Shown in pieces: positions 2,287 to 45,400 of a stretch of 64,000 bases of DNA (its first letter is position 1; each line of letters begins with the position of its first letter). This DNA is from Armigeres subalbatus (taxonomy: Eukaryota; Arthropoda; Insecta; Diptera; Culicidae): the NCBI RefSeq assembly GCF_024139115.2, contig NC_085141.1, forward strand, positions 366,764,759 to 366,828,758, read 5' to 3'. Made by a program: the position numbers and the translations under genes. Under the pieces are notes generated by a model, which worked only from the letters and a program-made list of their open reading frames with translations, searched no databases and was not told the DNA's origin.

Positions 2287-2911
2287 AGCTTGAGCTTGAG
2301 CTTGAGCTTGATTGACTGCTCGTAGTTGCTTTTCCATTATGACCAGATCAGCTGTTCTTGCACAGGGAACCAACAGATGTTTGCTTGGGACTAGCAAACA
2401 TCTTCAATGTACAAGTACTGGTGATCTCATTTGTTAGGTCATACTGGCGCCTGCCACGTCAGAATGCAAGTCAATGTAGGGAAGGGGGAGGAAATGATGA
2501 TGCAATCACTTGCCCACTGCAAGCCGAATATACCTCTGCACTTGCCACGAGTTCATGCGGAATTTGTTGGAATTTCTGGGTTAGGTTGAAGAGGCAGAGG
2601 TCCGTCTTGGTTAACGAGCTGCCAATGTGATAGATAGGAGAAGGTAACTGATGGAATTTCTAATTGGATGTAGGAAACGAGCTCTATAGTTCATTTCCAA
2701 TTCTAGCAGATTACTGATAGAATACTCAAGTTGAACATATAGGAATAGTAATGGAAACGGTATGGAAGTCCATTTCCAGTTCTAGCGATTGCTAGAACAT
2801 GAGAAATAAAGAGAAAGATACAAAGTAGGAGAATGGAACGGACCTGGGATTGAACCCACGACCTCCTGCGTATGAGGCAGAAGCAGTAGCCATATGACTA
2901 CCAAGCCCGCA
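2287..2911 (-). mobile_element. Second tRNA-derived SINE family, full-length copy
   Basis: On the minus strand the element begins near 2911 with a tRNA-like head: box A-like TGGTAGTCATATGG and box B-like GGTTCAATCCC. It ends at 2287 in a (TCAAGC)n tail, visible on the plus strand as four copies of GAGCTT at 2287-2311. Perfect 26-bp flanking direct repeats mark both ends. A partial copy of the body, without head, is at 25,985-26,232. The uninterrupted duplication suggests a fairly recent insertion. Confidence 0.75.
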
Positions 2912-4723: not shown

Positions 4724-4728
4724 CGTCC
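4724..4728 (+). repeat. 5-bp target-site duplication CGTCC (left)
   Basis: CGTCC precedes the 5' LTR and is repeated at 12,779-12,783 directly after the 3' LTR, as Ty3/Gypsy integrases generate. Confidence 0.85.
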
Positions 4729-4888
4729 TGTTGTCATATCGGCATACCCCTCGTATTCTGGTTAGATCACACACACAGACTGAGAAGAGAGATGGAATCA
4801 TTGTACTGCAGTCCGTCGCGTAGTTAAGTTCGCTAAAATATAATTCTCGTAAATCCATAAACGTGCGTTTTATTATAAGACGAGAACA
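4729..4888 (+). repeat. 5' LTR of the Mag-like element (160 bp)
   Basis: Starts TGTTGTCATATCGG and ends GACGAGAACA, the usual TG...CA. It is identical to the 3' LTR at 12,615-12,778 except for lacking four bases (GTCA) after ACTGAGA. It would contain promoter and RNA processing signals; I do not assign a TATA box. Confidence 0.93.
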
Positions 4889-4906
4889 TGGTGTCAGAAG
4901 TGGGAT
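4889..4906 (+). other. Primer binding site, tRNA-Leu type
   Basis: TGGTGTCAGAAGTGGGAT directly follows the 5' LTR. Its complement equals the 3' end of insect tRNA-Leu (acceptor and T-arm side ending TTCTGACA) plus CCA, over 18 bases. It primes minus-strand DNA synthesis. Confidence 0.8.
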
Positions 4907-5061
4907 AACTATTAGGTTTACGTTTTTTCGGCGTTAATTTCTTGAAATCGCGGAAAACGGAAAAAAAAACATTTTCGGTTCAATCATTAAATAGTGTGGG
5001 CAGCGGCGGCCATTTTGTTTTTTTTTTTCATTCGAGTGATTGGTTTTGGATCCTCATCGAT

Positions 5062-6468
5062 ATGGATCAAACGCAGTTCCAACAGTTTTTAAATTACCAG
5101 ACGCAGCTATTTACAAAGCTGATGCAGGACATGGTGGCACAGCAGCCGTCATCTTCCAGTATTCCCGTTCCTCAACCTTCACCGCTAGCCATAGAGGGCG
5201 ACATGGAACAGAATATGGATTTCTTCGAGCGGAGCTGGAACGAGTATACGAGAGCAACGGGAATGGACGATTGGCCACAAGGAGATAATGCAAAGAAAGT
5301 CAGTATTCTTCTGTCAGTAGTCGGTGAAGCAGCCAGAAGAAAATATTTCAATTTCGATCTAACAGCGGCACAACAGGCAGATCCCGCGACTGCACTGGCC
5401 GCCATTAAAGCTAAAGTCATCACAAAGCGCAACGTCATTATTGATCGACTGGATTTTTTTTCGGCTGGCCAATATTCAGTTGAATCAATCGATGATTATG
5501 TTAGTCGTCTCAAGACACTGGCAAAAGTAGCTAAGCTTGGTGTGATCGAGGATGAGCTTGTTACGTTCAAGATCGTCACATCTAACCGATGGCCACAACT
5601 GAAGGCGAAAATGTTATCCATGGCTGACATCACGCTAATGAAAGCCGTGGATTTATGTAGAGCAGAAGAGATCGCGACCAAACGATCATTGGATTTGGCG
5701 ATCCCAGCACCCAAAGTGGTAGAGGTTAACAAGGTGAGTCAAGGCAAAGCAGCAGTGAGCTATCCCCGTTGCAAATTTTGCGGAGACCGTCACGAATTCA
5801 GCAAAGGAAGTTGCCCTGCCTTAGGCAAACGCTGTCATAAGTGCAACGGAAAGAACCACTTTGGAAAAGTATGCAAGGCCAACAGGAAACGGAAACAACG
5901 GGGATCACGACGAATAAAAGAGGTGAAGGACCAAAGCAGTGACTCAAACGATGAAACTTCAGGATGCGACGAATCTTCGGATGAATCGGACGCGGAATAC
6001 GAGATTGGGAAGATTTTCGACAACTCGGATCATGGAGGCAGTGTTCTGGCTGAACTCGATCTGAAATTCGCTAATGTTTGGAAGTCCGTAACATGTGAGG
6101 TGGATACAGGCGCCAACACTAGTCTGATTGGATTTGCAAGACTAGCAAAACTTTGTGAAATCGATCATCCTCCAATGCTGCCTTCGAAGCTACGCCTTCA
6201 AAGCTTCGGAGGAAATCCAATTAAGGTACTAGGTCAAGTCAAGATCCCATGTCGACGCAAAGGAAAGAAATACCGATTGGTGCTTCAAGTAGTGGACGTC
6301 GACCATCGTCCCTTGCTATCGGCAAAAGCAGCTCGTGAATTGGGTTACGTCAAGTTCTGTAAGACAGTCATGTTCAGCAAATCGAAGTCTATGAATACAT
6401 CCGATGAGCTTTTGAATATTTATCGAATTAAGGCACAGCAGATAATAGATAACCTTTGGCGTAAATAA
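5062..6468 (+). CDS. gag: Gag and protease part of the Mag-like gag-pol polyprotein (interrupted)
   Basis: The likely start is the ATG at 5062 (MDQTQFQQFL); the frame is open upstream to 4942 but without a better ATG. Gag has a capsid-like helical region (about residues 40-220). Two CCHC-type knuckles follow near 5,770-5,875 (CKFCGDRHEF... and CHKCNGKNHFGKVC), then an acidic Ser/Asp linker. A retropepsin has the active-site motif VDTGANTSLIG near 6,100-6,135. Codons after 6454 belong to the inserted DNA element and reach a stop at 6466-6468. The original frame resumes at 8111 in register, so host-element gag and pol were one ORF. Confidence 0.88.
   Translation: MDQTQFQQFLNYQTQLFTKLMQDMVAQQPSSSSIPVPQPSPLAIEGDMEQNMDFFERSWNEYTRATGMDDWPQGDNAKKVSILLSVVGEAARRKYFNFDLTAAQQADPATALAAIKAKVITKRNVIIDRLDFFSAGQYSVESIDDYVSRLKTLAKVAKLGVIEDELVTFKIVTSNRWPQLKAKMLSMADITLMKAVDLCRAEEIATKRSLDLAIPAPKVVEVNKVSQGKAAVSYPRCKFCGDRHEFSKGSCPALGKRCHKCNGKNHFGKVCKANRKRKQRGSRRIKEVKDQSSDSNDETSGCDESSDESDAEYEIGKIFDNSDHGGSVLAELDLKFANVWKSVTCEVDTGANTSLIGFARLAKLCEIDHPPMLPSKLRLQSFGGNPIKVLGQVKIPCRRKGKKYRLVLQVVDVDHRPLLSAKAARELGYVKFCKTVMFSKSKSMNTSDELLNIYRIKAQQIIDNLWRK
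6446..6454 (+). repeat. 9-bp target-site duplication TAGATAACC (left)
   Basis: TAGATAACC recurs at 8102-8110 on the other side of the nested DNA element. A 9-bp duplication is typical of Mutator-like elements. Confidence 0.85.
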
Positions 6469-8101
6469 GGGGGGGCTAGGGGGGGCTTAGCCCTCCCTAG
6501 AAAAAAATTAGCCCCCCCTAGGATTTGATAAGTTAGTTAGTAGTGATATCAGTTTTCAACATATAGCATAATGAATTACCGAAAAAGTTTGAAGACTAAA
6601 GAGTTATCTCTCATATTCATTCTATCATACTTAATGAAATGAGTGGAAAAAATTAGCTTCTTTCTGAATTCTGAGAAAGATTCCTATCAGCATCCGAGAA
6701 GGATTCTCATCAGAATCCGAGAAGAATTCTTACTTCAATCTCTAAATAATTCTTTTCGGATTCATCGAAGTATTCCAATCGTAATCCAGAAGAATTCCTA
6801 CTGGATTCTTTCCAGTATTGTTAAGCAATACCCTTGGGAATCTGTGAAAAATACCCTTTAAAATCCATGGAAGATTTGCTTTAGAATCTCTCGTTGATTT
6901 GCTCCGGAAGATCTCCAGATTCGTTTTAAGATTGGTTTAGGAATTCCTTGACAAATCAGAATCCTTCGGCGATTTGCTTCGTAATCCTTTGAAGATTTAA
7001 TTCGGAGTCTCTCGACGTTTTGCAAATGATCTGCGTTGGGATCTCTAGACGATAAGGAATCCGGCTGACGATTAGCTTCGGAATCCCACGAAGAATTGCT
7101 TCAGAATCATTCGACGTTTCGTTTCGGAATACATCGACGGTTTGCTTCAGAATTTCTCATAGATTTTGTTCAGAGTCCCTAAATGATTTTTTTTTGGAAC
7201 CATTCGATGATTTGCTTCGAAATCCTTTGATGATTTGCATCGGAATCCCTCAACGATTTGCTTCAACATTCTTGGAGGATTCCCTTCGGGATCGCTGGAG
7301 GATTCTTTTCGAAATAACTGAAGGATTAATTCGGAGTCGCTCGACGATTTGCTTCGAAGTCCTTCGACGGATTGCTTCGGAATCCTTCGACGATATGCGT
7401 CTTCATCCCTGGAACATTGCTCACGAAATACCTGGAACCATCATATTGGAATTCCTGGAGGGTTTTCGACGAAATCCCGGGAATATTCCCCTTCAAATTC
7501 CTGAAATATTCCCGTCGAAATTCCTGGAGGGTGAAGAATCCCTGCTACATTCTCGTCGGAATCTCTGAAATTTTTCCGTTGGAATTCCTGAAACATTCCC
7601 TCCGAAATCTCTAGTGGATTCCCTTCATGATCCCTGAAGGCTCCCATCGGTATTCTCGTCGAAATATCTAGAGATTTCCGTCAGAGTCCCTGGAACATTC
7701 CAGTCAGCATCACTAAAGGATTGTCATCAGAATTCTTGGAAGATTCTCGGTGGAATCCATGGAAAGTTGCACTATTTTTTTTCATTTGAGATAGATAGAA
7801 TATTTATGAAGTATGCAAATCTATCCACTGCCTGACGCTAGTTGAGCGCAATTAAACATAGACTGTGAGTTGTTGCTCACACGTGCACACGTGCACGTGC
7901 TTGAGAAAAGAGAATAATATGAATGAGTGTGATGGATCCGCAATTGCCTTAGGTGGTTGGACTGCATTTGTCACATTACCGCTGATAACTTGATGATGAG
8001 ATGTTAAAATGTTCGAGAATTTTCAAAAAGAGGGTCAATTTTGAGAAAAAATATAAAGGGGCTATAGCCCCCCCTAGGCATCGGAGGTAGTTACGCCAAT
8101 G
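6455..8101. mobile_element. Nested non-autonomous DNA transposon, Mutator-like by TSD length
   Basis: The ends are inverted: TTTGGCGTAA at the left and TTACGCCAATG at the right. Subterminal blocks also pair (TAGGGGGGGCTTAGCCC / GGGCTATAGCCCCCCCTA). Flanking 9-bp duplications are perfect, and excision on paper leaves the gypsy frame continuous, which confirms both boundaries. The interior (about 6,650-7,760) is a degenerate tandem array of about 24-bp words like TTCGACGATTTGCTTCGGAA. No transposase is present; ORFs up to 124 residues (7194-7568) are products of the repeat. Superfamily assignment is inference from the duplication length. Confidence 0.85.
6650..7760. repeat. Degenerate minisatellite inside the nested Mutator-like element
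   Basis: Repeated variants of GAATCCCTCGACGATTTGCTTC follow each other with a period near 24 bp, drifting into GGAATTCCTGGA-type words after 7,430. Individual units differ at many positions, so the array is older than the LTRs around it and was carried in by the element. Confidence 0.7.
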
Positions 8102-8110
8102 TAGATAACC

Positions 8111-10401
8111 ACAAAAGTTTGTTCACCGGTTATGGGAAATTTTCCGATACGGTTTCGTTGGAAATCGATGATAGTGTTATTCCGTCGATCCAGCCTCCTA
8201 GACGGATACCGATCGCGATGAGAGAAAAGCTCAAGAAGGAACTCGTACAGCTGGAGAAGGATGGAATGATAGTCAAAGAACCATCACATACGGACTGGGT
8301 GAGTAATTTGGTTATTGTTCGTCGCCCCGGATCCGATGGGATTCGAGTGTGTTTGGATCCTGTCATGCTGAATAAAGCGTTGAAAAGACCAAACTTGCAA
8401 TTTGTGACACTGGACGAAATCCTGCCAGAACTTGGGAAAGCCAGAGTATTTTCCACTGTGGACGCTAGGAAGGGGTTTTGGCATGTAGTATTGGACGAAA
8501 CAAGTAGTAAATTGACTACATTCTGGACACCCTTCGGTCGTTTTCGTTGGACACGATTACCCTTTGGCATTTCATCAGCGCCGGAGATTTTCCAGCTAAA
8601 GCTACAGGAAGCCATCGAAGGCTTGGAAGGCGTGGAATGTATAGCAGATGACGTGCTAATATACGGAATTGGCGATACATTTGAAGAGGCATTAGTTAGC
8701 CACAACAAATGTCTGGAAGCACTCCTGGTCAGGCTGGAGCAAAAGAATGTGAAGCTTAATTTATCGAAACTCAAGCTGTGCCAAACTTCAGTCAAGTTTT
8801 ACGGACATGTGCTCACCGATCATGGATTGAAGCCAGACGAGAGCAAAGTTTCTGCCATCAGAGATTTCCCCAGGCCGACCAACAGAAAGGAGGTGCACCG
8901 TTTTGTTGGGATGGTAAATTATCTGAGCCGTTTCGTTAAAAATCTCAGTATGAATTTGGTCAACTTACGAAGCTTAATATCCGAGGAAGTGCCATGGAAG
9001 TGGTCGAAGATTGAAGAAGACGAATTCACCAACGTAAAATCATTGTTTGCGGATGTCGGTACTCTGCGTTACTACGATCCCAATCTACCACTGACAATAG
9101 AGTGTGATGCCAGCTGCTACGGTTTGGGTGCGGCAGTCTTTCAACAGGATAGTGTTGTTGGTTTCGCATCTAGAACCCTAACAACAGCAGAAAAGAACTA
9201 CGCTCAGATCGAAAAAGAGCTACTAGCAATCTTGTTTGCCTGTCTACGATTCGACCAACTCATCGTCGGCAATCCGAAAGCTGTTGTCAAGACGGACCAC
9301 AGACCACTAATCAACATCTTTCAAAAACCACTCTTATCGGCTCCGCGCCGGCTACAGCATATGCTTTTAAATTTGCAGCGATACAGCCTAACGATAGAGT
9401 ACGTGAGCGGAAAAGATAATGTCGTCGCGGACGCTCTTTCTCGAGCTCCGATGGTCAGCGAACCTGAAGATCAATATAGAAAGATGAACATCTTTAAGGT
9501 GCTTAAGGAAGTCGAGGACGTTAATCCGACAATCTACTTGAGCATTTCGCACCAGCGCCTAAGTGAAATAATCCAAGAAACGGAAAAGGATTCAACGATG
9601 CAGACAATCATTAAATTCATACACCACGGGTGGCCGAGGACAGTCGATAAAGTGCCAGATACAGTTCGAATATACTACAACTATCGAAACGAATTGAGTA
9701 CTGTTGATGGAGTGGTTCTGCGGTATGATAGAATAGTGGTCCCGTACGTGTTGCGTCGCAAAATGATTGACTGCTGTCATGTTAGTCATGGTGGCGTGGA
9801 AGCAACGCTGAAGCTAGCAAGAGCCAATCTTTTCTGGCCTGGCATGAGCTGCCAAATAAAGGACGTGGTTAAGGAGTGTACTGTTTGTGCAAAGTACGCT
9901 GCATCTCAAGCAAATCCTCCAATGATGAGTCACAGCATACCGGTATTCCCTTTCCAAATGGTGAGTATGGATGTTTTTCTCGCAGAATACCGTGGGCGTA
10001 AGCAGAAATTTCTTGTCACGGTCGACCACTACTCTGATTACTTTGAGGTTGACCTTTTGGAAGATTTGACTCCGGACACCGTCATTCGGGTGTGTAAAAG
10101 AAATTTCGCTCGTCACGGTGTACCACAAACGGTCTTGACGGACAACGGCACAAATTTCATCAACCGCAAAATGGTCCAGTTTGCTCACGATTGGGACTTT
10201 GAGCACATAACATCTTCACCGCATCATCAGCAGGCAAATGGAAAGTCGGAGGCGGCGGTGAAAATTGCAAAGCGAATGATGAAGAAATGCGAAGACACAG
10301 GTGAAGATTTTTGGTTCGCCCTTCTTCATTGGCGCAATGTGCCGAATAAAATAGGTACCAGTCCAACAGCACGGCTCTTCTCGCGATCAACTCGTTGCAG
10401 T
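8111..10401 (+). CDS. pol: Reverse transcriptase, RNase H and integrase part of the Mag-like gag-pol (interrupted)
   Basis: Open from the insertion junction. The reverse transcriptase contains RLPFGISSAP (near 8,550) and the catalytic IADDVLIYG (8,640-8,667). RNase H starts near IECDASCYGLGAAVF (about 9,090), with TDHRPL at 9,294. The integrase has the HHCC zinc region (HVSHGGV...CTVCAKY, about 9,780-9,900), the catalytic Asp in SMDVF, LTDNGTNF near 10,138, and the catalytic Glu in QQANGKSEAAV (about 10,228). All key residues are present. After 10,401 the frame enters a hAT-like insert and reads foreign codons to a stop at 10,659. True pol resumes at 11,931 in the same frame. Confidence 0.9.
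10394..10401 (+). repeat. 8-bp target-site duplication GTTGCAGT (left)
   Basis: GTTGCAGT is repeated at 11,923-11,930. Eight bases is the hAT hallmark. Confidence 0.85.
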
Positions 10402-11922
10402 CTGGGACGGGACTTGCAAAGAGGAAAAAATGTAACTTCAGCTGCTGCCAGCAGTGTTGCCACATTTTTATCTGTACCATGGGCTCAAAAATCTTTTTCA
10501 TCTGTACCGAAATCTTCAAAAATCTGTACTATAATCTGTACCAGACAGTATGATGAATTTGTGATATTTAAAAATCTAAAAATTATAAGACATATATGCA
10601 ATGCAACTCAATTTATTATTGAAATAGTTTTTTTTTTTAATTTGGATGGTTTCCTATGAGAGCGTAGATAACAAAATTCTTGGTCAACTTTTGAAATGTA
10701 TCTATAAGTAATTTTTTTTCACAATATCTTAAAATGGATGATTTATATGTATATTTCCTTATTTGGAGCACTGTTTCAGAGATGAGTCAGCCGAGGACTG
10801 CAAGTCTCTTCAATAACGACAATAATATTAATTATCATTATTTGGAGCAAATACCTGTACAAGAATTGAAACCTAAAGCCCCTGAAGCCCTACCTTGCTT
10901 ATGGTTACAAACGATAGATCAAGAATATATGAACCGATAACTTCTGAGTCGGAATCTTACGCGTTCAAGATGATAAGCTTTTTGATAGTTGACGCAAAAT
11001 CCATTTTAACTTATCATAAAGACTGAAAGAGCCGAAAAAATACCGTCGTCGTTAAATAAGTGAGTTATATAGCAAATTGGACTCGATTATCCAGAAATTT
11101 GACAAATAAATTGTCAAAGAACATCATTTTTTTACGAATTCCATGTTTATTTTGCATCTGTTTCTTATTGTCATCATATACAATCAAATATAAATGTAGA
11201 TTTACGAATCTGGAGTGGTTGCTTTAAAAAGGTCACAATATTAGCGATATAATCGTGTCTTTTTTTTACGGATAATTTAGTCTTTGAATAATCTAGACTG
11301 AAATGTCGTTGGAACGAACTTTTTGATTTCACCTCCATGATTTAAATATTTTTTATAGCAGAAGCATCTATTCGATGAAAACTGAAACAAAATATTTTTT
11401 TGTAAAGCTTGGTTTGTAAAAAATCTGTACCAATCTGTACTTATTGGAGAAAATCTGTAATCTGTACCGGACAGAATCTGTACCACAATTAGTCAAAAAA
11501 TCTGTACCTTTCCAGATAAATCTGTACTTGTGGCAACACTGGCTGCCAGTCAACTGCTGTCACGAACTGTCAGGTGCAACCAGCAGCTTTTTGTGTGAAA
11601 GTATTGGTATCCCAAATAAAATATTCCGCATGAATTTTGTTTTACGAAGACTTTTTCACTTAAACGAGTATTCCAAATCATCCGTTTAGCTTATTAAAAA
11701 TCAGATAGAAACTTGTGTTTTGTTCCCGGTATAAAAATGCTTATGAAAATGAATTTACTAATTCGTGAATTGTACACACTTTTATTGTGCTCAGAAGAGT
11801 CCACCCGGGGCTTAGGTGAAACAGTCAAGGAAACAGTTGAAACTCGATAATCAACTGTGATAAAAAGAAGAACAAGTGTCAAAACAAGGAAAAAGAAGCT
11901 GTCTTTGCCGGTCTCGTCTCAG
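10402..11922. mobile_element. Nested hAT-like non-autonomous element (level 2)
   Basis: Terminal inverted repeats CTGGGACGGGACTTGCAAAG and, from the right end, CTGAGACGAGACCGGCAAAG match at 16 of 20 positions, and an 8-bp duplication flanks them. The gypsy integrase frame continues in register across it, so the boundaries are secure. Of its 1,521 bp, 1,098 are a later insert and its duplication, so the element proper is only about 420 bp with no transposase: a MITE. Confidence 0.85.
10452..11541. mobile_element. hAT-like element nested within the nested element (level 3)
   Basis: Ends CAGTGTTGCCACA and TGTGGCAACACTG (the left has ...CCACATTT, the right GTGGCAACACTG) are inverted. The 8-bp duplication GCTGCCAG lies at 10,444-10,451 and 11,542-11,549. 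Several copies of ATCTGTACC or its variants cluster just inside both ends (10,476-10,545 and 11,425-11,530), as expected for subterminal transposase-binding repeats of hAT elements. The interior is AT-rich; the longest sensible ORF is 68 residues at 10,734-10,940, unrecognised. It is non-autonomous. Confidence 0.87.
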
Positions 11923-11930
11923 GTTGCAGT

Positions 11931-12587
11931 GTACCATCATCCATTGAAAATTTGCTTCCAAAGGTCGTGGAAAATGTACCTGCGTCAATCGAGAAACAGC
12001 GTAAACGTTCCAAATTCCACTATGATAAGAAATCACGGCACTTACCAGAATTACAGGTGGGCTCTGCAGTGTTTGCTCAACTAAATCCAGAAGAGACAAA
12101 AGTGTGGACACCAGCAATCGTTAGCAATCAGCTGAGTGAACGCTCATATGTGGTGGACGTCGGTGGCTCTAAATATCGTCGAAGCTTGGTACACTTGAAG
12201 CCGCGAAATGTAAACACTCATCGAAACATCGAATCATCAACAACAACGGGGACAAACGGAACAACGTATCGTTGTGATCAACCCGATCAACCGCCACCCA
12301 ACGGATCAAATGCAAGGACGAAAGATGTATCAACAACGCTTAATTCTTCAGCGAGCTGTGTGGCAGTACATAATTTTCAAAACAATCCGCCTCCTGTGAT
12401 TCAATCATCTGATGATACACCGTTGATGACAGTTCCAGAGGTAACGTCTGATCAATCGTCTGAAAAGCAGCCACGCAGCAATAGAGTGACCAAACCACAG
12501 GTGACTCCCATTTCAACATCGATCCGACCCAGACGAGAAAAGCAGTTGCCCAACAAGCTGAGAGATTATGATTTAAGTTTTAAGTAA
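11931..12587 (+). pseudogene. pol: C-terminal part of the Mag-like integrase / pol
   Basis: Resumes the gypsy frame after the level-2 insertion. It encodes the integrase C-terminal domain (around YDKKSRHLPELQVGSAVFAQ and VVDVGGSKYRRSLVHLK), then a Ser/Thr/Pro-rich low-complexity tail ending with RDYDLSFK and TAA at 12,585-12,587. It has no start of its own and is stranded from the rest of pol. The stop lies 27 bases before the 3' LTR. Confidence 0.85.
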
Positions 12588-12600
12588 AATACATTTTTTT

Positions 12601-12614
12601 GAAAATGAGGAGGA
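12601..12614 (+). other. Polypurine tract of the Mag-like element
   Basis: GAAAATGAGGAGGA immediately precedes the 3' LTR. It is all purine except one T and is the expected plus-strand primer. Confidence 0.75.
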
Positions 12615-12778
12615 TGTTGTCATATCGGCATACCCCTCGTATTCTGGTTAGATCACACACACAGACTGAGAGTCAAGAGAGATGGAATCATTGTACTGCA
12701 GTCCGTCGCGTAGTTAAGTTCGCTAAAATATAATTCTCGTAAATCCATAAACGTGCGTTTTATTATAAGACGAGAACA
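12615..12778 (+). repeat. 3' LTR of the Mag-like element (164 bp)
   Basis: Same as the 5' LTR apart from four extra bases, GTCA, after ACTGAGA. The target duplication CGTCC follows at 12,779-12,783. Confidence 0.93.
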
Positions 12779-12790
12779 CGTCCTTTAATT

Positions 12791-26239: not shown

Positions 26240-28640
26240 GGGGATGGACAAAATAATTAGGATAGGCAAATTTTGCGTAAAATTAGATGTGTTGTAACTA
26301 TCTTAGTTACCATCCGATTTTGACAATTCAGGCATGCCCGAACTAGAAAATTATTACAGTTTGACGGTATGTCCTTGGCACCGACTATGGTCACCGGATT
26401 CCAGAGATATTCCGGGTCTTTCGGAGGTAGGTTCAAAACCGTATTTTTTAGGTGGATATTAGGAGAAGTTGTGATTGAAAAGTGAATAATATTAGTAACC
26501 ACAAATGAAGTAGGGCTCTTGTCAATTGGAATCATATATTGAGATTTGGACTCGGACCAGAATCATGTGAGATATGGCCATTTATTTATAATCGGTTCCG
26601 ATCGATACTTATCAAAGGGGTCAGGCCACAACTTCATTTGAATCTCGCTTTTTGATAGATCGTCCACTATGATTTTATTCCAGAAGGCTTCTAATGTGTC
26701 AAGAATCAAAAAGCAATTGATTAAACGGGTGAATGGGGACATTTTAGTTTTACCACCAAAACCAGTCATTCGACGGATCTTTTTTTCATGGTTTTCGATC
26801 AGGAAGCGAAGTATGAATATAAAATGGTCCATTGACAGCTCTGACCGCTTCCAGGTTGCCTGGTTGCCTCCGAGGAACCTGTGGAAGAGGACATTTTATT
26901 TTTAGCACTAAAACCAGTCATTCGATTTTCGATCAGGAAGCGAAGTATGAATATAAAATGGTCCATTGACGGCTCTGACCACTTCCAGGACCCACGGATT
27001 GCCCCTGGGGAATCTGTGGAAGGGGACATTTTATTTTAAGCATCATAACCAGTCATTCGACGGCTCTTTTTTCATGGTTTTCGATCAGGAAGTGAAGCAT
27101 GAATATAAAATATTCCATTGAAGGCTCTGACCGCTTTCAAGACCTACGGCTTGGCCCCGGAGAACCTGTGGAAGTCCCCTTACCACCAAAACCAGTCATT
27201 CGACGGTTTTTTTTTTCATGGTTTTCGATCAGGAAGCGAAGTATGAAGTAGGCAGTAATAAAACTGAAAAAAAAAATGATTCGGGTAATATTTTTAAAAT
27301 GATTCTGGTATTTCATATTTATACCTCGTTTCCTGATCGAATAACGATTATTTTCACAGAAAACCCCGGGGCAATTAGTAGTTCCTGAGAGCAGTCAGAG
27401 CCGTAAATGGTCCATTTTATATTCATACTTCGCTTCCTGATCGAAAACCTTAAAAAAGAGCCGTCGAATCACTGGTTTTGATGCTAAAACTAAAATGTTC
27501 CTTTCCACAGGTTTCCCTTGAGCTATCCGTAGGTCCAAAAAGCGGTCAGAGCCGTCAATGGTCCATTTCTTGTTCATACTCCACATTCTGATTAAAACCC
27601 ATGAAAAAAGAGCCGTCCAATGATTGGTTTTGGTTTTAAAACTAAAATGTTCCCTTCCACAGTTCCCCTGGGGCAATCCGTAAGTCCTGGAAGCGGTCAG
27701 ATTCATTAATGGTCCAATTTATACTCATACTTCGCTTTCTGATCAAAAATCACGAAAAAAAAGCAGTCGAGTTATTGGTTTTGGTGCTGCAACTTAAATG
27801 TCCCTCTCCACAGGTTTTCCAGGGGTAATCTGTAGGTCCGGAGAGCAGTCAGAGTCATCAATGGTCCATTTTATATTCATACTTTGCTTATATGAAAGAA
27901 GAGCTGTCGAATGATTGATTTTGGTGTAAAAACTAAAATGTCCCCTTCCACAGGTTCCTCGGGGGCAACTAGTAAGTCCTGGAAGCGGTCAAAGCCGTTA
28001 ATGGTCCTTTTACATTTATACCTACTTTGCTTCCTGATCGAAAACCATGAAAAAAGAGCCGTCGAATAAGTGATTTTGGTGCTAAAACTAAAATGTCCCC
28101 TTCCACAGGTTCCCCGGACCAATCCGTAGATCCTGGAAGCGGTCAGAGCCGTCAATGGACCATTTTATATTAATACTTCGCTTCCTGATCGATAACCATG
28201 AAAAAAAGAGCCGTCGAATGACTGATTTTGGTGCTAAACCTCAATGTCCCCATTCACAGGTTCCCCTGGGACATCCCAGCGACTCCAGGATTCGTTTATT
28301 CAATTGGTTTTTCATTCTTGACACAAAAGAAACCTTCTGGAATAAAATCATAGTGGACGATCTATCAAAAAGCGAGATTCAAATGAAGTTGTGGCCTGAC
28401 CCCTTTGATAAGTATCGATCGGAACCGATTATAAAGAAATGGCCATATCTCACTTGATTCTGGTCCGATTCCAAATCTCAATATATGGTTCCAAATGACA
28501 AGAGCCCTACTTCATTTGTGTTTACTAAAATTATTCAAATTTTAACCACAACTTCTCCTAATATCCAGGTAGCATACCTTAGAATTTCAGAGGTAGGTTC
28601 AAAACCGTAAATTTTAGGTAGAGTTGAGAGTGTTTAGACT
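26240..28640. mobile_element. Fold-back element with mirrored tandem arrays
   Basis: Outer arms at about 26,460-26,720 and 28,290-28,620 are inverted copies: both carry GATCTATCAAAAAGCGAGATT or its complement and TAAGTATCGATCGGAACCG. Inside, about four units of roughly 150 bp (26,770-27,260) point one way and about six (27,395-28,280) the other, built around AAATGGTCCATTGACGGCTC and CTTCCACAGGTTCCCC. The left edge starts GGATGGACAAAATAATTAGG, reminiscent of Tc1-like termini; the right edge lacks it. No transposase is seen. Confidence 0.7.
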
Positions 28641-30863: not shown

Positions 30864-30938
30864 TCCTTCGTAGCTTAGTTGGTTAAAGCACCAGTCTAGC
30901 GTACTGTAGGGTCATGGGTTCGAGTCCCATCGAAGGGA
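30864..30938 (+). tRNA. tRNA-like locus (AGC in the anticodon position); SINE head possible
   Basis: A cloverleaf can be drawn: acceptor TCCTTCG/CGAAGGG, D stem GCTT/AAGC, anticodon stem CCAGT/ACTGT with one C-U mismatch and loop CTAGCGT, T stem ATGGG/CCCAT with loop TTCGAGT. Both internal promoter boxes (TAGCTTAGTTGG and GGTTCGAGTCC) are intact. The anticodon position reads AGC (Ala), but the acceptor is not Ala-like and the variable loop is long, so isotype is doubtful. No T run follows closely. It may be a tRNA pseudogene or a SINE head. Confidence 0.4.
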
Positions 30939-32104: not shown

Positions 32105-32885
32105 ATTTATTTATTTATTACCAGACTAAGGCCGGAGTTGCCTGTGCAATGCATAGAAGTCTTCTCCATTCAGCACGGTCCATTGCTGCACGTCGTCAAC
32201 CCCGCAGTCTGCGGATGCTCCGCAAATCGTCCTCCACATGATCGATCCACCTTGCTCGCTGTGCACCTCGCCTTCTTGTTCCCGTCGGATCGTTGTCGAG
32301 AACCATTTTCACCGGATTACTGTCCGACATTCTGGCAACGTGCCCGGCCTGTCTTCCGATTTTCGCCGTATGAACGATGGATGGTTCTTCCAACAGCTGA
32401 TGCAACTCGTGGTTCATTCGCCTCCTCCACGTGCCGTCCGCCATCTGCTCACCACCATAGATGGTATGCAGCACTTTCCTTTCGAAAATTTCCAGTGCGA
32501 TTTCGTCCTCCACGAGCATCGTCCAGGTTTCGTGTCCGTAGAAAGCTACCGGTCTAATAAACGTTTTGTAGATAGTCAGTTTGGTACGGTGGCGAACTCT
32601 ATTCGATCGAAGCGTTTTAGCGGAGTCCACAGTACGTACGATTTCCTGCCATGATGTGTCCCTGAATTTCTCTGCTGGTATCGTTATCGGAGGTCACCAG
32701 TGAGCCTAAGTACACGAATTCTTCAAACTCATCGATTTCCTCACCACAAATACAAACTCGTGGTGGCTTACCTCTCTTGAGTCTCTTCCTATCATGTATT
32801 TCTTCTTAGACGTGTTGATGATTAGTCCAATTCTTTTAGTTTTGCTTTTCAGTCTGATATAGGATTGCTCCATCTTCTCAAAGAT
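32105..32885 (-). pseudogene. 3' end of an RTE-like LINE, 5' truncated
   Basis: Minus-strand reading gives SKTKRIGLIINTSKKKYMIG, then TLRSNRVRHRTKLTIYKTFI, YGHETWTMLVEDE, GHVARMSDSNPVKMVL and GTRRRGAQRARWIDHVEDDL, the C-terminal region after the palm. A short 3' tail of TAAATAAATAAAT units ends at 32,105, as in RTE-type elements. The 5' edge lies inside a different LINE (32,890-33,250), showing truncated insertion into it. Confidence 0.75.
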
Positions 32886-33250
32886 AGACAAGGCATCGAG
32901 GCGAACGGAATCCAAAGCCCCCTTGATGTCAAAAAGTACAGAACCCAATTGCTCTTTTTGAGAGAAGGTAAGTTGAATTTCTGAAGTGAGCAACGCAAAA
33001 CAGTCATTCGTTCTTTTGCCTTTCCGGAAACCAAACTGTGTATCTGACAACAAACCACTAGAATCAACCCATTCGTCTAGCCGACGAACAAGCATCTTGT
33101 CCGAAAGCTTCCGAAGACACAATAGCATCGTGAAAGGACGATACGAATTACAATCGGACGCGAGCCACAACATTTTAGGGAGGCTGATCATCGCCAGAAT
33201 TCCAGCAAGGGAATCTAAACATAATTGTAGAAGTCGCTGGGAGTAAGATG
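32886..33250 (-). pseudogene. Reverse transcriptase fragment of a second LINE lineage (I/Jockey-like)
   Basis: Minus-strand ORF segment with SYRPFTMLLCLRKLSDKMLV, LLSDTQFGFRKGKRTNDCF and LFDIKGALDSV. This is the block with the first catalytic Asp (here in 'DIKGA'). It is distinct from the RTE-like fragments. It is fused in frame by chance to the inserted RTE-like 3' piece, making a hybrid 161-residue ORF. Confidence 0.7.
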
Positions 33251-39494: not shown

Positions 39495-42400
39495 AAGAAA
39501 TTCCTTTAAAACTTTTCTAACTGAATTTCTTTATGAAATTCCTCTCCAAATTCTTTTTGGAAATTTCTCCGAATTTCTTTAAATTCCACCGAATTCCTTT
39601 TGGGAATCTTCCGATGAATGTCCTTGGGAAATTCTTCCGAATTTCTTGAAAAATTCTTCCGACTCCCTAAAATTCTTCCGAATTTCCCCGGGAAAGTTCT
39701 GAATTCCTTGCTGGGGGAAATCGAATTTGTTGGGAAAATTCTTCCGAATTTCAGAAGTTCTTCCTTGAATTTCCTGGAAATTCTTCCGACTTCCTGGGAA
39801 TTTTTCCGATTTCCTGGGAAATTCTTCCGACTTTGGGAATTCTTCAATTCCTTGGGAAATTCTTCACACTTCGGGAAATTCTTCCGACTTCCTTGAAATT
39901 TTTCGATTTCCTGGAAATTCTTTCTGACCTCCTGGGGAAATCTTTTCGACTTCGGGGAAAATTCTTTCTGAATTTCGGGGAAATTCCTCTGAATTTCATT
40001 GGGAAATCTTCGATTGTTCTTCGAATTTCCCCGGGAAATTTTTCTTATGAAATTCCTCCAAATTCTTTGGGAAATTCCTCCACTTCCTGTAAATCACCGA
40101 ATTCCTTGAGAAATTCTTCAATGTCCTTTTTGGGAAATTCTTCCGACTTTCAGAAAATTCTTCCGATCTCCTTTGGGAAATTCTTCCGACTTCTCGAAAT
40201 TTGAATTTTTCGAGAATTTTTCATTCGTTGGGGAAATTCTTCCGAATTTTCAGTTCTTCTGAATTTTGGGAAATTTTTTCCGACTTTTTGGGAAATTCTT
40301 CCGAATTTCCTTGGGAAATTCTTCCGATTTCTTGGGAAAATTTGACTTCCTTGGGAAATTATAATTTTAAATTCTTCCGACTTCCTTGGGAAATTTTTCG
40401 ATATCTTTGGGAAATTTTTTCGATTTCCTTGGGAAATTCGATTTCCTTGGGAAACTTTCGAATTTCCTTTGGAAATTCTTTCGACTTCATTGGGAAATTT
40501 TCGAGATTTCCTTTGGGAAATTTCTTTCGACTTTGGGAAATTCTTCAAATTTCCTTGGTACCCTTCCGAATTTCCTGAGAAATTCTTCCTTCCGACTTCT
40601 TTGGGAAATTTTCCGATTTCTTGGGAAATTTGAATTTCCTTTGGGAAATTCTTCCGAATTTCCTTGGGAATTCTTCCGACTTCCTTTGGGAAATTCTTCA
40701 ATTTCCTTGGAAAATTCTCCTTCCCGACTTCCTTGAGAAATTCTTCGACTTTCTTTGGGAAATTCTTTCCCGACTTCCTTGGGAAATTCTTTGAATTTCC
40801 TTGGGAAATTTTCCGATTTTCTGGGAAATTCTTCCGAATTTTTGAAATTCTTCCGAATTTCCTTTTTGGGAAATTTCTTCCGACTTCCTTTGGAAATTCT
40901 TCCTGAATTTCCTTTGGGGAAATTTCTTCCGAATTTCCTTGGGAAATTCTTCCGAATTTCCTTTGGGAAAATTCTTCCGAATTTCTTGGAAATTTTCCGA
41001 ATTCCTTTGGAAATTATCTTCCTTGGGAAATTCCTCCGAATTTCTTTTGGGAAATTCCTCCGAATTTCCTTGGGAAATTCTTCCGACTTTCCTGGGAAAT
41101 TTCTTCCGAATTTTGGGAAATTCTTCCGACTTCCTTTGGGAAATTCTTCCGACTTCTTGGGAAATTCTTCCGAATTCCTCCTTGGGAAATTCTTCCGAAT
41201 TTCTTTTGGGAAATTCCTTCCGAATTTCCTTGGGAAATTCTTCCGAACTTTCTTGGGAAATTTCTCCGAATTTCTTTTGGGAAATTCTTCGAATTCCTTT
41301 GGGAAAATTTCTCCTGAATTTTGGGAAATTCCTCCGAATTCCTCCTGGGAAATTCCTCCGAGTCTCCTTTGGGAAATTCTTTCCGAATTTCCTTGGGGAA
41401 ATTCTCTGACTTTTGAAATTCTTCCGAATTTTGGGAAATTCTTCCGAATTTCTTTGGGAAATTTTCTTCCGAATTTCCTTTGGGAAATTCTTCCTGAATT
41501 TCCTTTTGGGAAATTCTTCGAATTTATTAGAAATTCTCCTCTGAATTTCCTTCGAGAAATTCTTCGACTTTCCTTTTTGGGAAATTCTTCGAATTTCCTT
41601 GGGAAATTCCTTCGAATTCCTTTTTGGGAAATTCTTCGACTTCCTCTTGGGAAATTCCTTCGACTTCCTTTTTGGAAATTCTTCGACTTCTTGGGAAATT
41701 CCTTCGAATTCCTTTAAAATTCGACCTCCTTGGGAAATTCTTCGAATTTCTTTTGGGAAATTCTCCGACTTCCTTTTGGGAAATTTTCTTCGAATTTCCT
41801 GGGAAATTTCTTCCGAATTTCTGGGAAATTCTTCCGAATTTCGACTTGGGAAATTCTTCCGACTCTTGGGAAATTCTCCTGAATTTCCTTGGAAATTTTT
41901 CGAATTTCGGGGAAATTTCGACTTCGGAAATTCTTCGAATTCTTTTTGGAAATTCCTTCGAATCTTTTGGGAAATTCTTTTCGAATTTCCTTGGAAATTC
42001 TTTCTTTGAATTTCTTTGGGAAATTCCTTTTTTCGAATTTCCCTTGGGAAATTCCTTTTCGAATTTCTTTGGGAAATTTTTTTCGAATTTCTTTGGGAAA
42101 TTCCTTCGAATTTCCTTTAAATTTTCTTCAATTTCTTTTTAGAAATTCCTTCACTTTGGGAAATTCTTTCGAATTTTGGAAATTCTTCGAATTTCCTTTT
42201 GGGAAATTTCGAATTTCTTTTTGGGAAATTCTTCGACTTCTTGGGAAATTTTCGAATTTCCTTTGGAAATTTTCGAATTTCTTGAAATTCCTTCGAATTT
42301 CTTGGGAAATTCCTTCGAATTTCTTTTGGGAAATTTCGAATTTCCTGAAATTCTTCTGACTTTCTTGGAAATTCTTCGACTTTTTTTGGGAAATCTCTTC

Positions 42401-45400
42401 GAATTTCCTTGGGAAATTTTTCGAATTTCTTTGGAAATTCTTCGACTTTTTGGGAAATTCTTCGAATTTCTTGGGAAATTCTTCGAATTTCGAAATTCTT
42501 CGAATTTCCTTGGGAAATTCTTCGAATTTCCTTTGGGAAATTTTCGAATTTGGGAAATTTTTCGAATTTCCTGGGAAATTTTTCGAATTTCCTTGGGAAA
42601 TTATTCCGAATTTGGGAAATTCCTTCTGAATTTCTTGAAATTCTTTCGAATTTTGGGAAATTTCTTCGAGATTTCGGGAAATTTTTCGAGATTGGAAATT
42701 TTTTCGACTTCTTGGGAAATTCTTCGAATTTCCTTGGAAATTTTTTCGAATTTCTTTGGGAAATTCTTCGAATTTCCTTGGGAAATTTTCGAATTTCTTT
42801 TGAAATTTCTTCGAATTTCTTTGGGAAATTCTTCGAATTCTCAGAAATTCTTCGAATTTGGGAAATTCTTCGAATTTCTTGGGAAATTCTTCAATTTTTG
42901 AGACTGAATTTCCTTGGGAAATGAATTTCCTTAAATTCGAATTTTTGAAATTCTTCGAATTTCCTTGGAATCGACTTTCCTCGAAATTCTTCGATTTCTT
43001 GGGAAATTCTTCGAATTTTGGAAATTTCTGAATTTCTTGGAAATTCTTCGAATTTCCTTGGGAAATTTCTTCTGAATTTCTTGGGAAATTTTCGAATTTC
43101 AGTTGGGAAATTCTTCGAATTGAATCCTTCGAAATTGAATTTTGGGAAATTCCTTCGAATTTCTTTGGGAAATTCTTCGAATTTCTTTGGAAATTAATTT
43201 CGGGAAATTCCTCGAACTTCCTTTAGAAATTTTTCTGACTTTATTGGAAATTCTTCGAATTTCTGGGAAATTCTTCGAATTTCCTTGGGAAATTCCTTCT
43301 GAATTTCCTTGGGAAATTTTCGAATTTGGGGAAATTCTTCGAATTTTTAGAAAATTCCTTCGAATTTCTTTAGAAATTTCTTCGAATTCTCCTTGGAAAT
43401 TTCTTTTCGAATTTCCTTCGAAATTCTTCGAATTTTGGGAAATTTCTTTGAAATTTCTTCGAATTTCTTGGGAAATTCTTCTCGAATTTCCTTTTGGGAA
43501 ATTCTTCGAATTTCCTTTGGGAAATTCTTCGAATTTCCTTGGGAAATTTTCGACTTTCCTTGGGAAATTTCTTCGATTTTCCTTAGAAATTCTTCGAATT
43601 TCTTGGGAAATTTCTTCGAATTTCCTTTGGAAATTCTCGAATTTCCTTGGGAAATTCTTCGACTTTTGAAAATTTCCTTCAATTTCCTTGGGAAATTTCT
43701 TCGAATTTCCTTTGGAAATTTCTTCGAATTTTTTCGGGGAATTCCTTCGAATTTCCTCGGGAAATTCTCGAATTTCTTGGGAAATTCTTCTGAATTTCCT
43801 TTTGGAAATCTTCGAATTTCCTTCGACTTTTCTGAATTTCTGGGAAATTCTTCGAATTTCTTTGGGAAATTCTTCGAATTTCGGGAAATTCTTCGAATTT
43901 CCTTGGGAAATTCCTTCGAATTTTTTTGAAATTCTCTGAATTTCTTTTAAAACTCGAATTTCCTTTGGGAAGATTTCTTCTAATTTTAAATTCTTCGAAT
44001 TTCTAGGGAAATTCCTTCGAATTTCTTTTGGAAATTCCTTTCGAATTTCCTTGGAAATCTTCGATTTTCCTTGGAAAATTCTTCAAATTTCCTTGGGAAA
44101 TTCTTCGAATTTCCCTTGAAATTCCTTCGAATTTTGGGAAATTCTTCGAATTTCCTTTGGGAAATTTCTTCGAATTTCCCTTGGGAAATTCCTCCGAATT
44201 TCTTTTGGGAAATTCCTTCTGAATTTCCTTGGGAAATCTTTTTCTGAATTTCCTTGGGAAATTCCTTCGACTCTCCTTTGGAAATTTTTCGAATTTCCTT
44301 TGGAAATTCTTCGAATTTTTTGGGAAATTTTCGACTTCTTTGAAATTCTTCGAATTTCCTTGGAATTTTCGAATTTCAAATTTTCGAATTTCCTTTGGGA
44401 AATTCCTTCGAATTTCCTTTTTGAAATTTCTTTCGAATTTCCTTGGGAAATTTTCTGAATTCTTTGGGAAATTCTTCGAATTTTGGGAAATTCTTCGAAT
44501 TTCCTTGGAAATTTTCGAATTTCCTTGGGAAATTTCGACCTTTTAAATTGAATTTTTGGAAATTCTTTTCGAACTCTTCCTTGGAAATTCTTCTGAATTT
44601 TGGGAAATTCCTTCGAATTTCCTTCTTGGGAAATTCCTTCGAATTTCGGGAAATTCTTCGAATTTCCTTGAAATTCCTTCGAATTTCCTTGGGAAATTCC
44701 TTCGAATTTCCTTGGGAAATTCCTTCGAATTTCTTTTGGGAAATTCCTTCTCCGAATTTCCTTGGGAAATCTTCGAATTCCTTAGAAATCCTTCTGAATT
44801 TTGGAAAATTCCTTCGAATTTTGGGAAAATTTTCTGAATTTCTTTGGGAAATTTCTTTCGAATTTCCTTTGGAAATTCCTTCTTTAATTTCCTTTTTGGG
44901 AAATTCCTTCGAATTTCCTTTAAAATTTTCTGAATTTCTTTTAGGAAATTCTTCTGAATTTTCGACTTCAGAAATTCTCACTTTGGGAAATTTTCTGAAT
45001 TCTTAAATTTCGATTTTGGGAAATTCTTCGACTTTTCCTTGAGAAATTCTTACGAATTTCCTTGGGAAATTCCTCCGAATTTTCTTGGTAATTTTCAATT
45101 TCAAATCAAATTTCCTTTGGAAATATTTTGAATTTCTTGAAATTTCTTCAATTCTTCGAATTTCCTTGGGAAATTCTTCAAATTTCCTTGGGAAATTTTT
45201 CTGAATTTGGGAAATTCCTTTCGAATTTCCTTGGGAAATTCTTCGAACCCCTTTCTTATGAAATTCTTCGAATTTCCTTGTGAAATTTTCGAATTTACTT
45301 GAAATTCTTCGAATTCTCTTTGGATTGAATTCTTCGAATTTTTTTGGGAAATTGTTACCGAATTTCTTGGGAAATTCATTCGAATTTCCTTAGAAATTCT

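What the first reader, a model, noticed from the sequence alone, without database searches (positions are those of the whole stretch)
4729..12778. Three-level nesting: hAT-like element inside a hAT-like MITE inside a Mag-like gypsy, beside a Mutator-like insert
All boundaries are visible at base level: CGTCC (5 bp) for the gypsy, TAGATAACC (9 bp) for the 6455-8101 element, GTTGCAGT (8 bp) for 10402-11922 and GCTGCCAG (8 bp) for 10452-11541. The gypsy frame is in register across both first-level insertions, an independent check on the boundaries. The order of events is fixed: gypsy first, then the two DNA elements, then the innermost one.
Basis: seen in the sequence. Interest (0 to 1): 0.75.

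Follow-up and report, generated by a model that had tools for sequence, protein, structure and literature searches.

The report
Transposons nested three deep in mosquito
A young jumping gene of a mosquito was hit by two smaller DNA transposons, one of which holds a third, and a public gene model appears to treat one of these inserts as an intron.

Summary
The nesting is real. The window lies on C3 of a 1.34-Gb genome that matches Armigeres subalbatus. A Mag-type gypsy (4729-12778, TSD CGTCC) carries two DNA inserts, TE1 and TE2. TE2, a 423-bp MITE, is itself split by a 1090-bp hAT-like element, TE3. Unoccupied sites were found for all three inserts: two other gypsy copies lack TE1, two lack TE2 (three copies in all), and none of the 29 other TE2 copies read holds TE3. 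Each insert belongs to a dispersed repeat family with its own TSDs elsewhere.

Corrections: TE1 is 6454-8101 with an 8-bp TSD (TAGATAAC), not 9, so the Mutator label loses its main support. The order is only partly fixed: TE1 cannot be dated against TE2 or TE3.

Extra: an NCBI protein that must be this locus skips exactly TE2+TE3+one TSD. One GT-AG intron fits, with GT from the TSD and CAG from TE2's end. TE2's target preference makes this common: 23 of 70 exact right ends in the genome are followed by GT. The donor is weak and no RNA was seen, so I read the intron as an annotation product. Nested transposons are ordinary (general knowledge); interest is modest.

The parts
4724..4728 (.). 5-bp TSD CGTCC, left copy
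4729..4888 (+). gypsy 5' LTR, 160 bp; lacks 4 bp present in the 3' LTR and in a solo LTR elsewhere
   Evidence: solo LTR L003 identical to the 3' LTR at 164 of 164 bases
4889..4905 (+). primer binding site TGGTGTCAGAAGTGGGA; tRNA-Leu type (assignment recalled, not tested)
   Evidence: for the sequence
5062..6453 (+). gypsy frame, first piece (gag to protease region), open; no Pfam match
6446..6453 (.). 8-bp TSD TAGATAAC of TE1, left copy
6454..8101 (+). TE1, 1648-bp non-coding insert, about 11-bp TIR (family end CATTGGCGTAA), G-rich subterminal repeats, degenerate 23-bp repeats inside
8102..8109 (.). 8-bp TSD TAGATAAC of TE1, right copy
8113..10401 (+). gypsy frame, second piece: RT, RNase H, integrase zinc-binding and integrase core
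10394..10401 (.). 8-bp TSD GTTGCAGT of TE2, left copy; its GT is the donor of the apparent intron
10394..11922 (+). stretch skipped as an intron by the NCBI protein P0001 (GT-AG, 1529 bases)
10402..11922 (+). TE2, a 423-bp MITE (TIR CTGRGACGRGAC) in two parts, 10402-10451 and 11550-11922, around TE3 and the second copy of its TSD
10444..10451 (.). 8-bp TSD GCTGCCAG of TE3, left copy
10452..11541 (+). TE3, 1090-bp hAT-like non-coding element, TIR CAGTGTTGCCACA, 11 subterminal ATCTGTA repeats
11542..11549 (.). 8-bp TSD GCTGCCAG of TE3, right copy
11923..11930 (.). 8-bp TSD GTTGCAGT of TE2, right copy
11931..12584 (+). gypsy frame, last piece (end of pol), open; no Pfam match
12615..12778 (+). 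gypsy 3' LTR, 164 bp
12779..12783 (.). 5-bp TSD CGTCC, right copy

Best explanation
A recently inserted Mag-type gypsy (one gag-pol frame, 5-bp TSD) was later hit by two DNA elements that carry no gene of their own: TE1 (1648 bp) between the protease and RT parts, and TE2 (423-bp MITE) near the end of pol. TE2 also took an insertion of the hAT-like TE3. Shown: boundaries, TSDs, repeat families, frame register, and unoccupied sites for all three inserts. Inferred: integrase made the 5-bp TSD, and transposases supplied from elsewhere in the genome moved TE1, TE2 and TE3. An NCBI protein for this locus skips TE2+TE3 as an intron because the TSD starts with GT and TE2 ends with CAG; I take that as homology-guided annotation, not proven splicing.
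For: Boundaries and TSDs. Dispersed copies: TE2, 25 of 30 loci read (this one included) have perfect 8-bp TSDs; TE3, 18 of 20 other regions read; TE1, 8 of the 9 copies whose left end was found, out of 18 fetched. Empty sites: TE1 in L090 and L131, TE2 in L129 and L130, TE3 absent from 29 of 29 other TE2 loci read. Frame in register. P0001 equals two window pieces letter for letter, and the window alone matches the last piece in full at 100%.
Against: No unoccupied site for the gypsy itself was seen; no other strain was available. 5 of 30 TE2 loci, 2 of 20 TE3 regions and 1 of 9 TE1 copies lack a perfect TSD, and in 9 of 18 TE1 copies the left end was not in the fetched stretch. No autonomous partner was found for any insert.
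Confidence: 0.96

Rival explanations
1. TE2 is introner-like. Its ends carry a 3' splice site (pyrimidine-rich, CAG), its 8-bp target preference supplies GT, and the spliceosome removes TE2+TE3+one TSD from the gypsy RNA.
For: P0001 skips exactly that stretch. Of the exact-removal registers tested for TE1, TE2 and TE3, only one in TE2 gives GT-AG. 23 of 70 exact TE2 right ends in the genome, this one included, are followed by GT, p 2.6e-13 against a GT frequency of 5.05% in the window. Both ends read outward are pyrimidine-rich (14 and 13 of 20) and end CAG. Some introners use the same layout (PMC9860276, passages).
Against: The donor matches 3 of 9 consensus positions; 967 of 3232 GTs in the window score as low or lower. 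The intron is known only from a database protein whose support I could not see. No RNA data. The GT preference is explained by the target motif alone.
Confidence: 0.1
2. TE1 and TE2 are standing parts of a gypsy subfamily, carried along when it moves.
For: The window copy is the only full-length 100% match to its pol piece, so a subfamily of close copies cannot be examined.
Against: 4 of 4 informative sites in three other gypsy copies are empty. No insert-sized gap in database relatives: 93 of 120 aligned on both sides of the TE2 site and 50 of 120 at the TE1 site.
Confidence: 0.01
3. TE3 sat inside TE2 before TE2 moved into the gypsy, so the composite arrived in one step.
For: Nesting alone does not exclude it.
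Against: None of the 29 other TE2 loci read holds TE3, and none of the 20 other TE3 regions read has the TSD GCTGCCAG. Only part of both families was read.
Confidence: 0.06

Closest known systems
Mag-lineage Ty3/gypsy elements of Culex quinquefasciatus, e.g. cqgypsy_8, _9, _32 (PMC3286476, passages)
   Same: Short LTRs (145-190 bp there, 160/164 here), one ORF, 5-bp TSD, Leu-type primer site, element of 4.6-5.0 kb (backbone here 4865 bases by subtraction)
   Different: This copy is split by two DNA inserts; no tree against named Mag elements was made
hobo and Hermes, hAT superfamily (PMC3276498 and PMC2803484, passages)
   Same: 8-bp TSD with preference GTNCGNAC (hobo) or nTnnnnAn (Hermes), like the TSDs of TE2 and, more weakly, TE3
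   Different: TE2 and TE3 code for nothing; TE2 begins CTG; no transposase was linked to either
P elements and P-MITEs (PMC3276498; PMC1562414; passages)
   Same: 8-bp TSD; P-element target motif GTCCGGAC also resembles TE2's GTYNNRAC
   Different: No P-like ends or protein found for TE2; not tested by sequence comparison
Introners (PMC9860276, passages)
   Same: Small DNA element with TIR and TSD; 3' splice site at its end, GT taken from the TSD, as described there for Symbiodinium microadriaticum
   Different: Splicing not shown here; donor weak; TSD 8 bp here, 4 bp in that example
Muta elements, Mutator-like, of Aedes aegypti (PMC5225508, passages)
   Same: 8-9-bp TSDs, short terminal motif and subterminal repeats recall TE1
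   Different: 12 of 14 Muta families have TIRs over 100 bp; TE1 has about 11 bp

Membership tests
Ty3/gypsy, Mag lineage | LTRs, 5-bp TSD, RT-RNase H-integrase order | tested here: met
Ty3/gypsy, Mag lineage | primer site for tRNA-Leu or tRNA-Ser | not tested
   Sequence TGGTGTCAGAAGTGGGA seen; the tRNA-Leu assignment is recalled
Ty3/gypsy, Mag lineage | place in an RT/RH/IN tree with Mag | not tested
   No tree made
hAT superfamily (TE3) | 8-bp TSD | tested here: met
   18 of 20 other regions read; this copy
hAT superfamily (TE3) | TIR of the CAGTG type (type recalled) | tested here: met
   CAGTGTTGCCACA at both ends
hAT superfamily (TE3) | T at position 2 and A at position 7 of the TSD | tested here: inconclusive
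   T 13 of 18, A 8 of 18
hAT superfamily (TE3) | related hAT transposase with the same ends | tested here: inconclusive
   The one long copy read (L075) shows no long transposase-like ORF by eye; no genome-wide search for one
hAT superfamily (TE2) | 8-bp TSD with preference like hobo | tested here: met
   25 of 30 loci; T at 2 in 16 of 25, A at 7 in 18 of 25; P elements share it
hAT superfamily (TE2) | ends beginning CA (recalled) | tested here: not met
   Begins CTG
Mutator-like (TE1) | 8-10-bp TSD | tested here: met
   8 bp; shared with hAT and P, so not telling
Mutator-like (TE1) | long TIR (over 100 bp is typical) | tested here: not met
   About 11 bp; two of 14 Aedes families have TIRs under 60 bp
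Introner (TE2) | splice sites at the element/TSD edges allow exact removal | tested here: met
   GT-AG at 10394-11922 only
Introner (TE2) | spliced from RNA, at many genic sites | not testable with these tools
   No RNA data; only P0001

The most novel reading that the evidence does not exclude
TE2 is an introner-like MITE of a mosquito. Its target preference (GTYNNRAC) puts a GT at the upstream edge of about a third of its insertions, and both of its ends carry pyrimidine-rich CAG acceptors. In either orientation it could therefore be spliced out of a gene, and here out of a retrotransposon RNA that could then be copied back without it.
Probability: 0.1. Interest if true: 0.7.

Novelty: new member of a known kind. 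Interest (0 to 1): 0.3.

Why it matters
As it stands it is a clean example of nested transposition, with an unoccupied site for each DNA insert in the same genome. It also shows how a TSD that starts with GT and an element end in CAG can make a transposon pass for an intron in a gene model. If TE2 really splices, intron gain by a DNA transposon could be tested in a mosquito.

Tried and rejected
Rejected: a 9-bp TSD for TE1. Inserts as standing parts of the gypsy family. Exact-removal introns for TE1 or TE3: no GT-AG or GC-AG register. P0001 as another gypsy copy: only the window matches the last piece in full at 100% among 5 matches, the contig length given for P0001 is that of C3, and P0001 begins at the first ATG in frame after TE1.

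Led nowhere: a viral-contig scan with the pol piece (6 stretches matched a pattern, none a relative). A paper search with TIR strings (22 papers hold one; the 12 listed were seen as titles and abstract starts and are not about these elements). A paper search on spliced-out hAT insertions (listing only, nothing used). The gag piece gave 70 proteins, none an Armigeres protein above 62% identity. The gypsy copy C1:225984912-225992006 cannot test the TE2 site because that part is gone. No autonomous partner of TE1, TE2 or TE3 was found, and no genome-wide search for one was made.

Not done: a tree of the gypsy against named Mag elements; a test of the primer-site tRNA; any RNA analysis.
Full report
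WHAT IS THERE. The window is C3:366764759-366828758 of a genome of 1,335,692,571 bases. The pol piece of the gypsy matches an NCBI protein of Armigeres subalbatus at 100% over 95% of its length (P0001), and the contig length given for P0001, 430,149,658, is that of C3. The source is therefore inferred to be this mosquito. At 4729-12778 lies a Ty3/gypsy element. Its LTRs of 160 and 164 bp differ by one 4-bp gap and no substitution, its TSD is CGTCC, and its single gag-pol frame lies in three open pieces. Pfam finds RT, RNase H, the integrase zinc-binding domain and the integrase core in the middle piece and nothing in the other two. The best solved relative is Ty3. LTR size, one ORF and the 5-bp TSD match Culex Mag elements (PMC3286476, passages). 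The Leu-type primer site is recalled, not tested, and no tree was made.

THE INSERTS. TE1 lies at 6454-8101, TE2 at 10402-11922, and TE3 inside TE2 at 10452-11541. Net inserted lengths are 1656, 1529 and 1098 bases.

EACH INSERT IS A DISPERSED FAMILY. A first look in the genome gave 1326 candidates for the TE2 right part, 1154 for the TE1 right part and 542 for TE3; 40 were scored in each case, and the rest are not counted as copies. For TE2, 30 loci were read, this one included. 25 of 30 have a perfect 8-bp TSD. None of the other 29 carries TE3: 28 run straight through its site, and one (L029) has a small internal deletion. Divergence from the majority sequence is 0.2 to 3.8%, and 0.7% for this copy. 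For TE3, 20 other regions were read and 18 have perfect 8-bp TSDs. For TE1, 18 other copies were fetched. The left end was found in 9, and 8 of those have a perfect 8-bp TSD.

CORRECTION TO TE1. In the 9 copies with a left end, the element starts CATTGGCG, and the right end reads CGCCAATG, its mirror. The C at 6454 is therefore the element's first base. The host happens to have a C there too, which made the TSD look like 9 bp. With the 9-bp argument gone and a TIR of about 11 bp, 'Mutator-like' is not supported. It is not excluded either, since Aedes MULEs make 8-9-bp TSDs and two of 14 families have TIRs under 60 bp (PMC5225508, passages). I leave TE1 unclassified.

UNOCCUPIED SITES. TE1: the gypsy copy on C1 (junction 225986669/225986668) reads TAGATAACC, then ACAAAAG. 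A copy on C3, 37-46 kb upstream of this one, reads TAGATAATC, then ACAAAAG. TE2: what I take to be the same C3 copy reads CTCGTTGCAGT, then GTACCATC, and another copy on C1 (254302671/254302672) reads CTCGCTGCAGT, then GTACCATC. Of the 120 listed protein relatives, 93 aligned on both sides of the TE2 site. 83 of these (P0001, which is this locus, among them) have no extra residue, and the other 10 lie between -35 and +3. At the TE1 site 50 aligned. 15 have exactly the one expected residue, and the rest lie between -55 and +11, as the linker is poorly conserved. No insert-sized gap appears.

ORDER AND AGE. The gypsy came before TE1 and TE2 reached it. TE3 entered TE2 after TE2 existed. TE1 is not ordered against TE2 or TE3, and arrival of TE2 with TE3 already inside is unlikely but not excluded. 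A solo LTR on C2 (TSD ACTAT) equals the 3' LTR at 164 of 164 bases, so the 4-bp gap is most likely a loss from this 5' LTR, and the gypsy is young. The family is sparse: 8 LTR matches, this copy's two included, and 5 matches to the last piece. The pol piece has 47 matches, of which only the window's is full-length at 100%.

THE APPARENT INTRON. P0001 (946 aa) is letter for letter the window frame from 8218 to 10401 followed by that from 11931 to 12584. It starts at the first ATG in frame after TE1 and skips TE2+TE3+one TSD. Only the window matches the last piece in full at 100%, so I take P0001 to be this locus. Of the exact-removal registers tested for TE1, TE2 and TE3, one gives GT-AG: 10394-11922, where GT is the start of the TSD and CAG the end of TE2. 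The coincidence has a cause. TE2's TSDs follow GTYNNRAC: 8 of 25 start with GT and 8 of 25 end with AC. In the whole genome, 23 of 70 exact right ends, this one included, are followed by GT, p 2.6e-13 against the window's GT frequency. Such palindromic preferences are known for hobo (GTNCGNAC) and P (GTCCGGAC) (PMC3276498, passages) and for Hermes (nTnnnnAn; PMC2803484, passages). Both ends of TE2, read outward, are pyrimidine-rich (14 and 13 of 20) and end CAG. Some introners share this layout (PMC9860276, passages). Against real splicing: the donor matches 3 of 9 consensus positions, no better than 967 of 3232 GTs in the window, and no RNA was available. I hold the intron to be a product of homology-guided annotation, with about 10% for real splicing.

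VERDICT. A well-read observation of an ordinary kind of event, with one boundary corrected, one class label withdrawn, the claimed order loosened, and one side finding that RNA data can test.

Noticed in passing
40369-44534: About 4 kb of degenerate tandem repeats, period about 22-23 bases (190 copies by TRF at 71% matches). TE1's interior also has degenerate 23-base repeats; whether the two are related was not tested.
   Followed up: no
27364-28270: Tandem array, period 151, 6.1 copies.
   Followed up: no
30864-30938: tRNA-Ala (agc) found by Rfam and ARAGORN. ARAGORN alone also lists a tRNA-Met at 2834-2910, minus strand.
   Followed up: no
32706-33191: A 161-aa ORF on the minus strand that looks like a piece of a LINE reverse transcriptase by eye; no family search was made.
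   Followed up: no
10452-11541: TE3's 11 subterminal ATCTGTA repeats (4 near the left end, 7 near the right) all point the same way, not as mirror images.
   Followed up: partly
L012 and L030: Two other TE2 copies sit inside longer open frames that look like LINE proteins by eye; no GT-start TSD there in the sense of the frame.
   Followed up: partly
L129, L131 (C3:366723050-366732341): A second gypsy copy of the same family, broken by gaps that suggest inserts of its own, lies 37-46 kb upstream on the same strand, outside the window.
   Followed up: partly
L032 (C2:133307499-133308299): Two TE2 copies lie next to each other head to tail.
   Followed up: no
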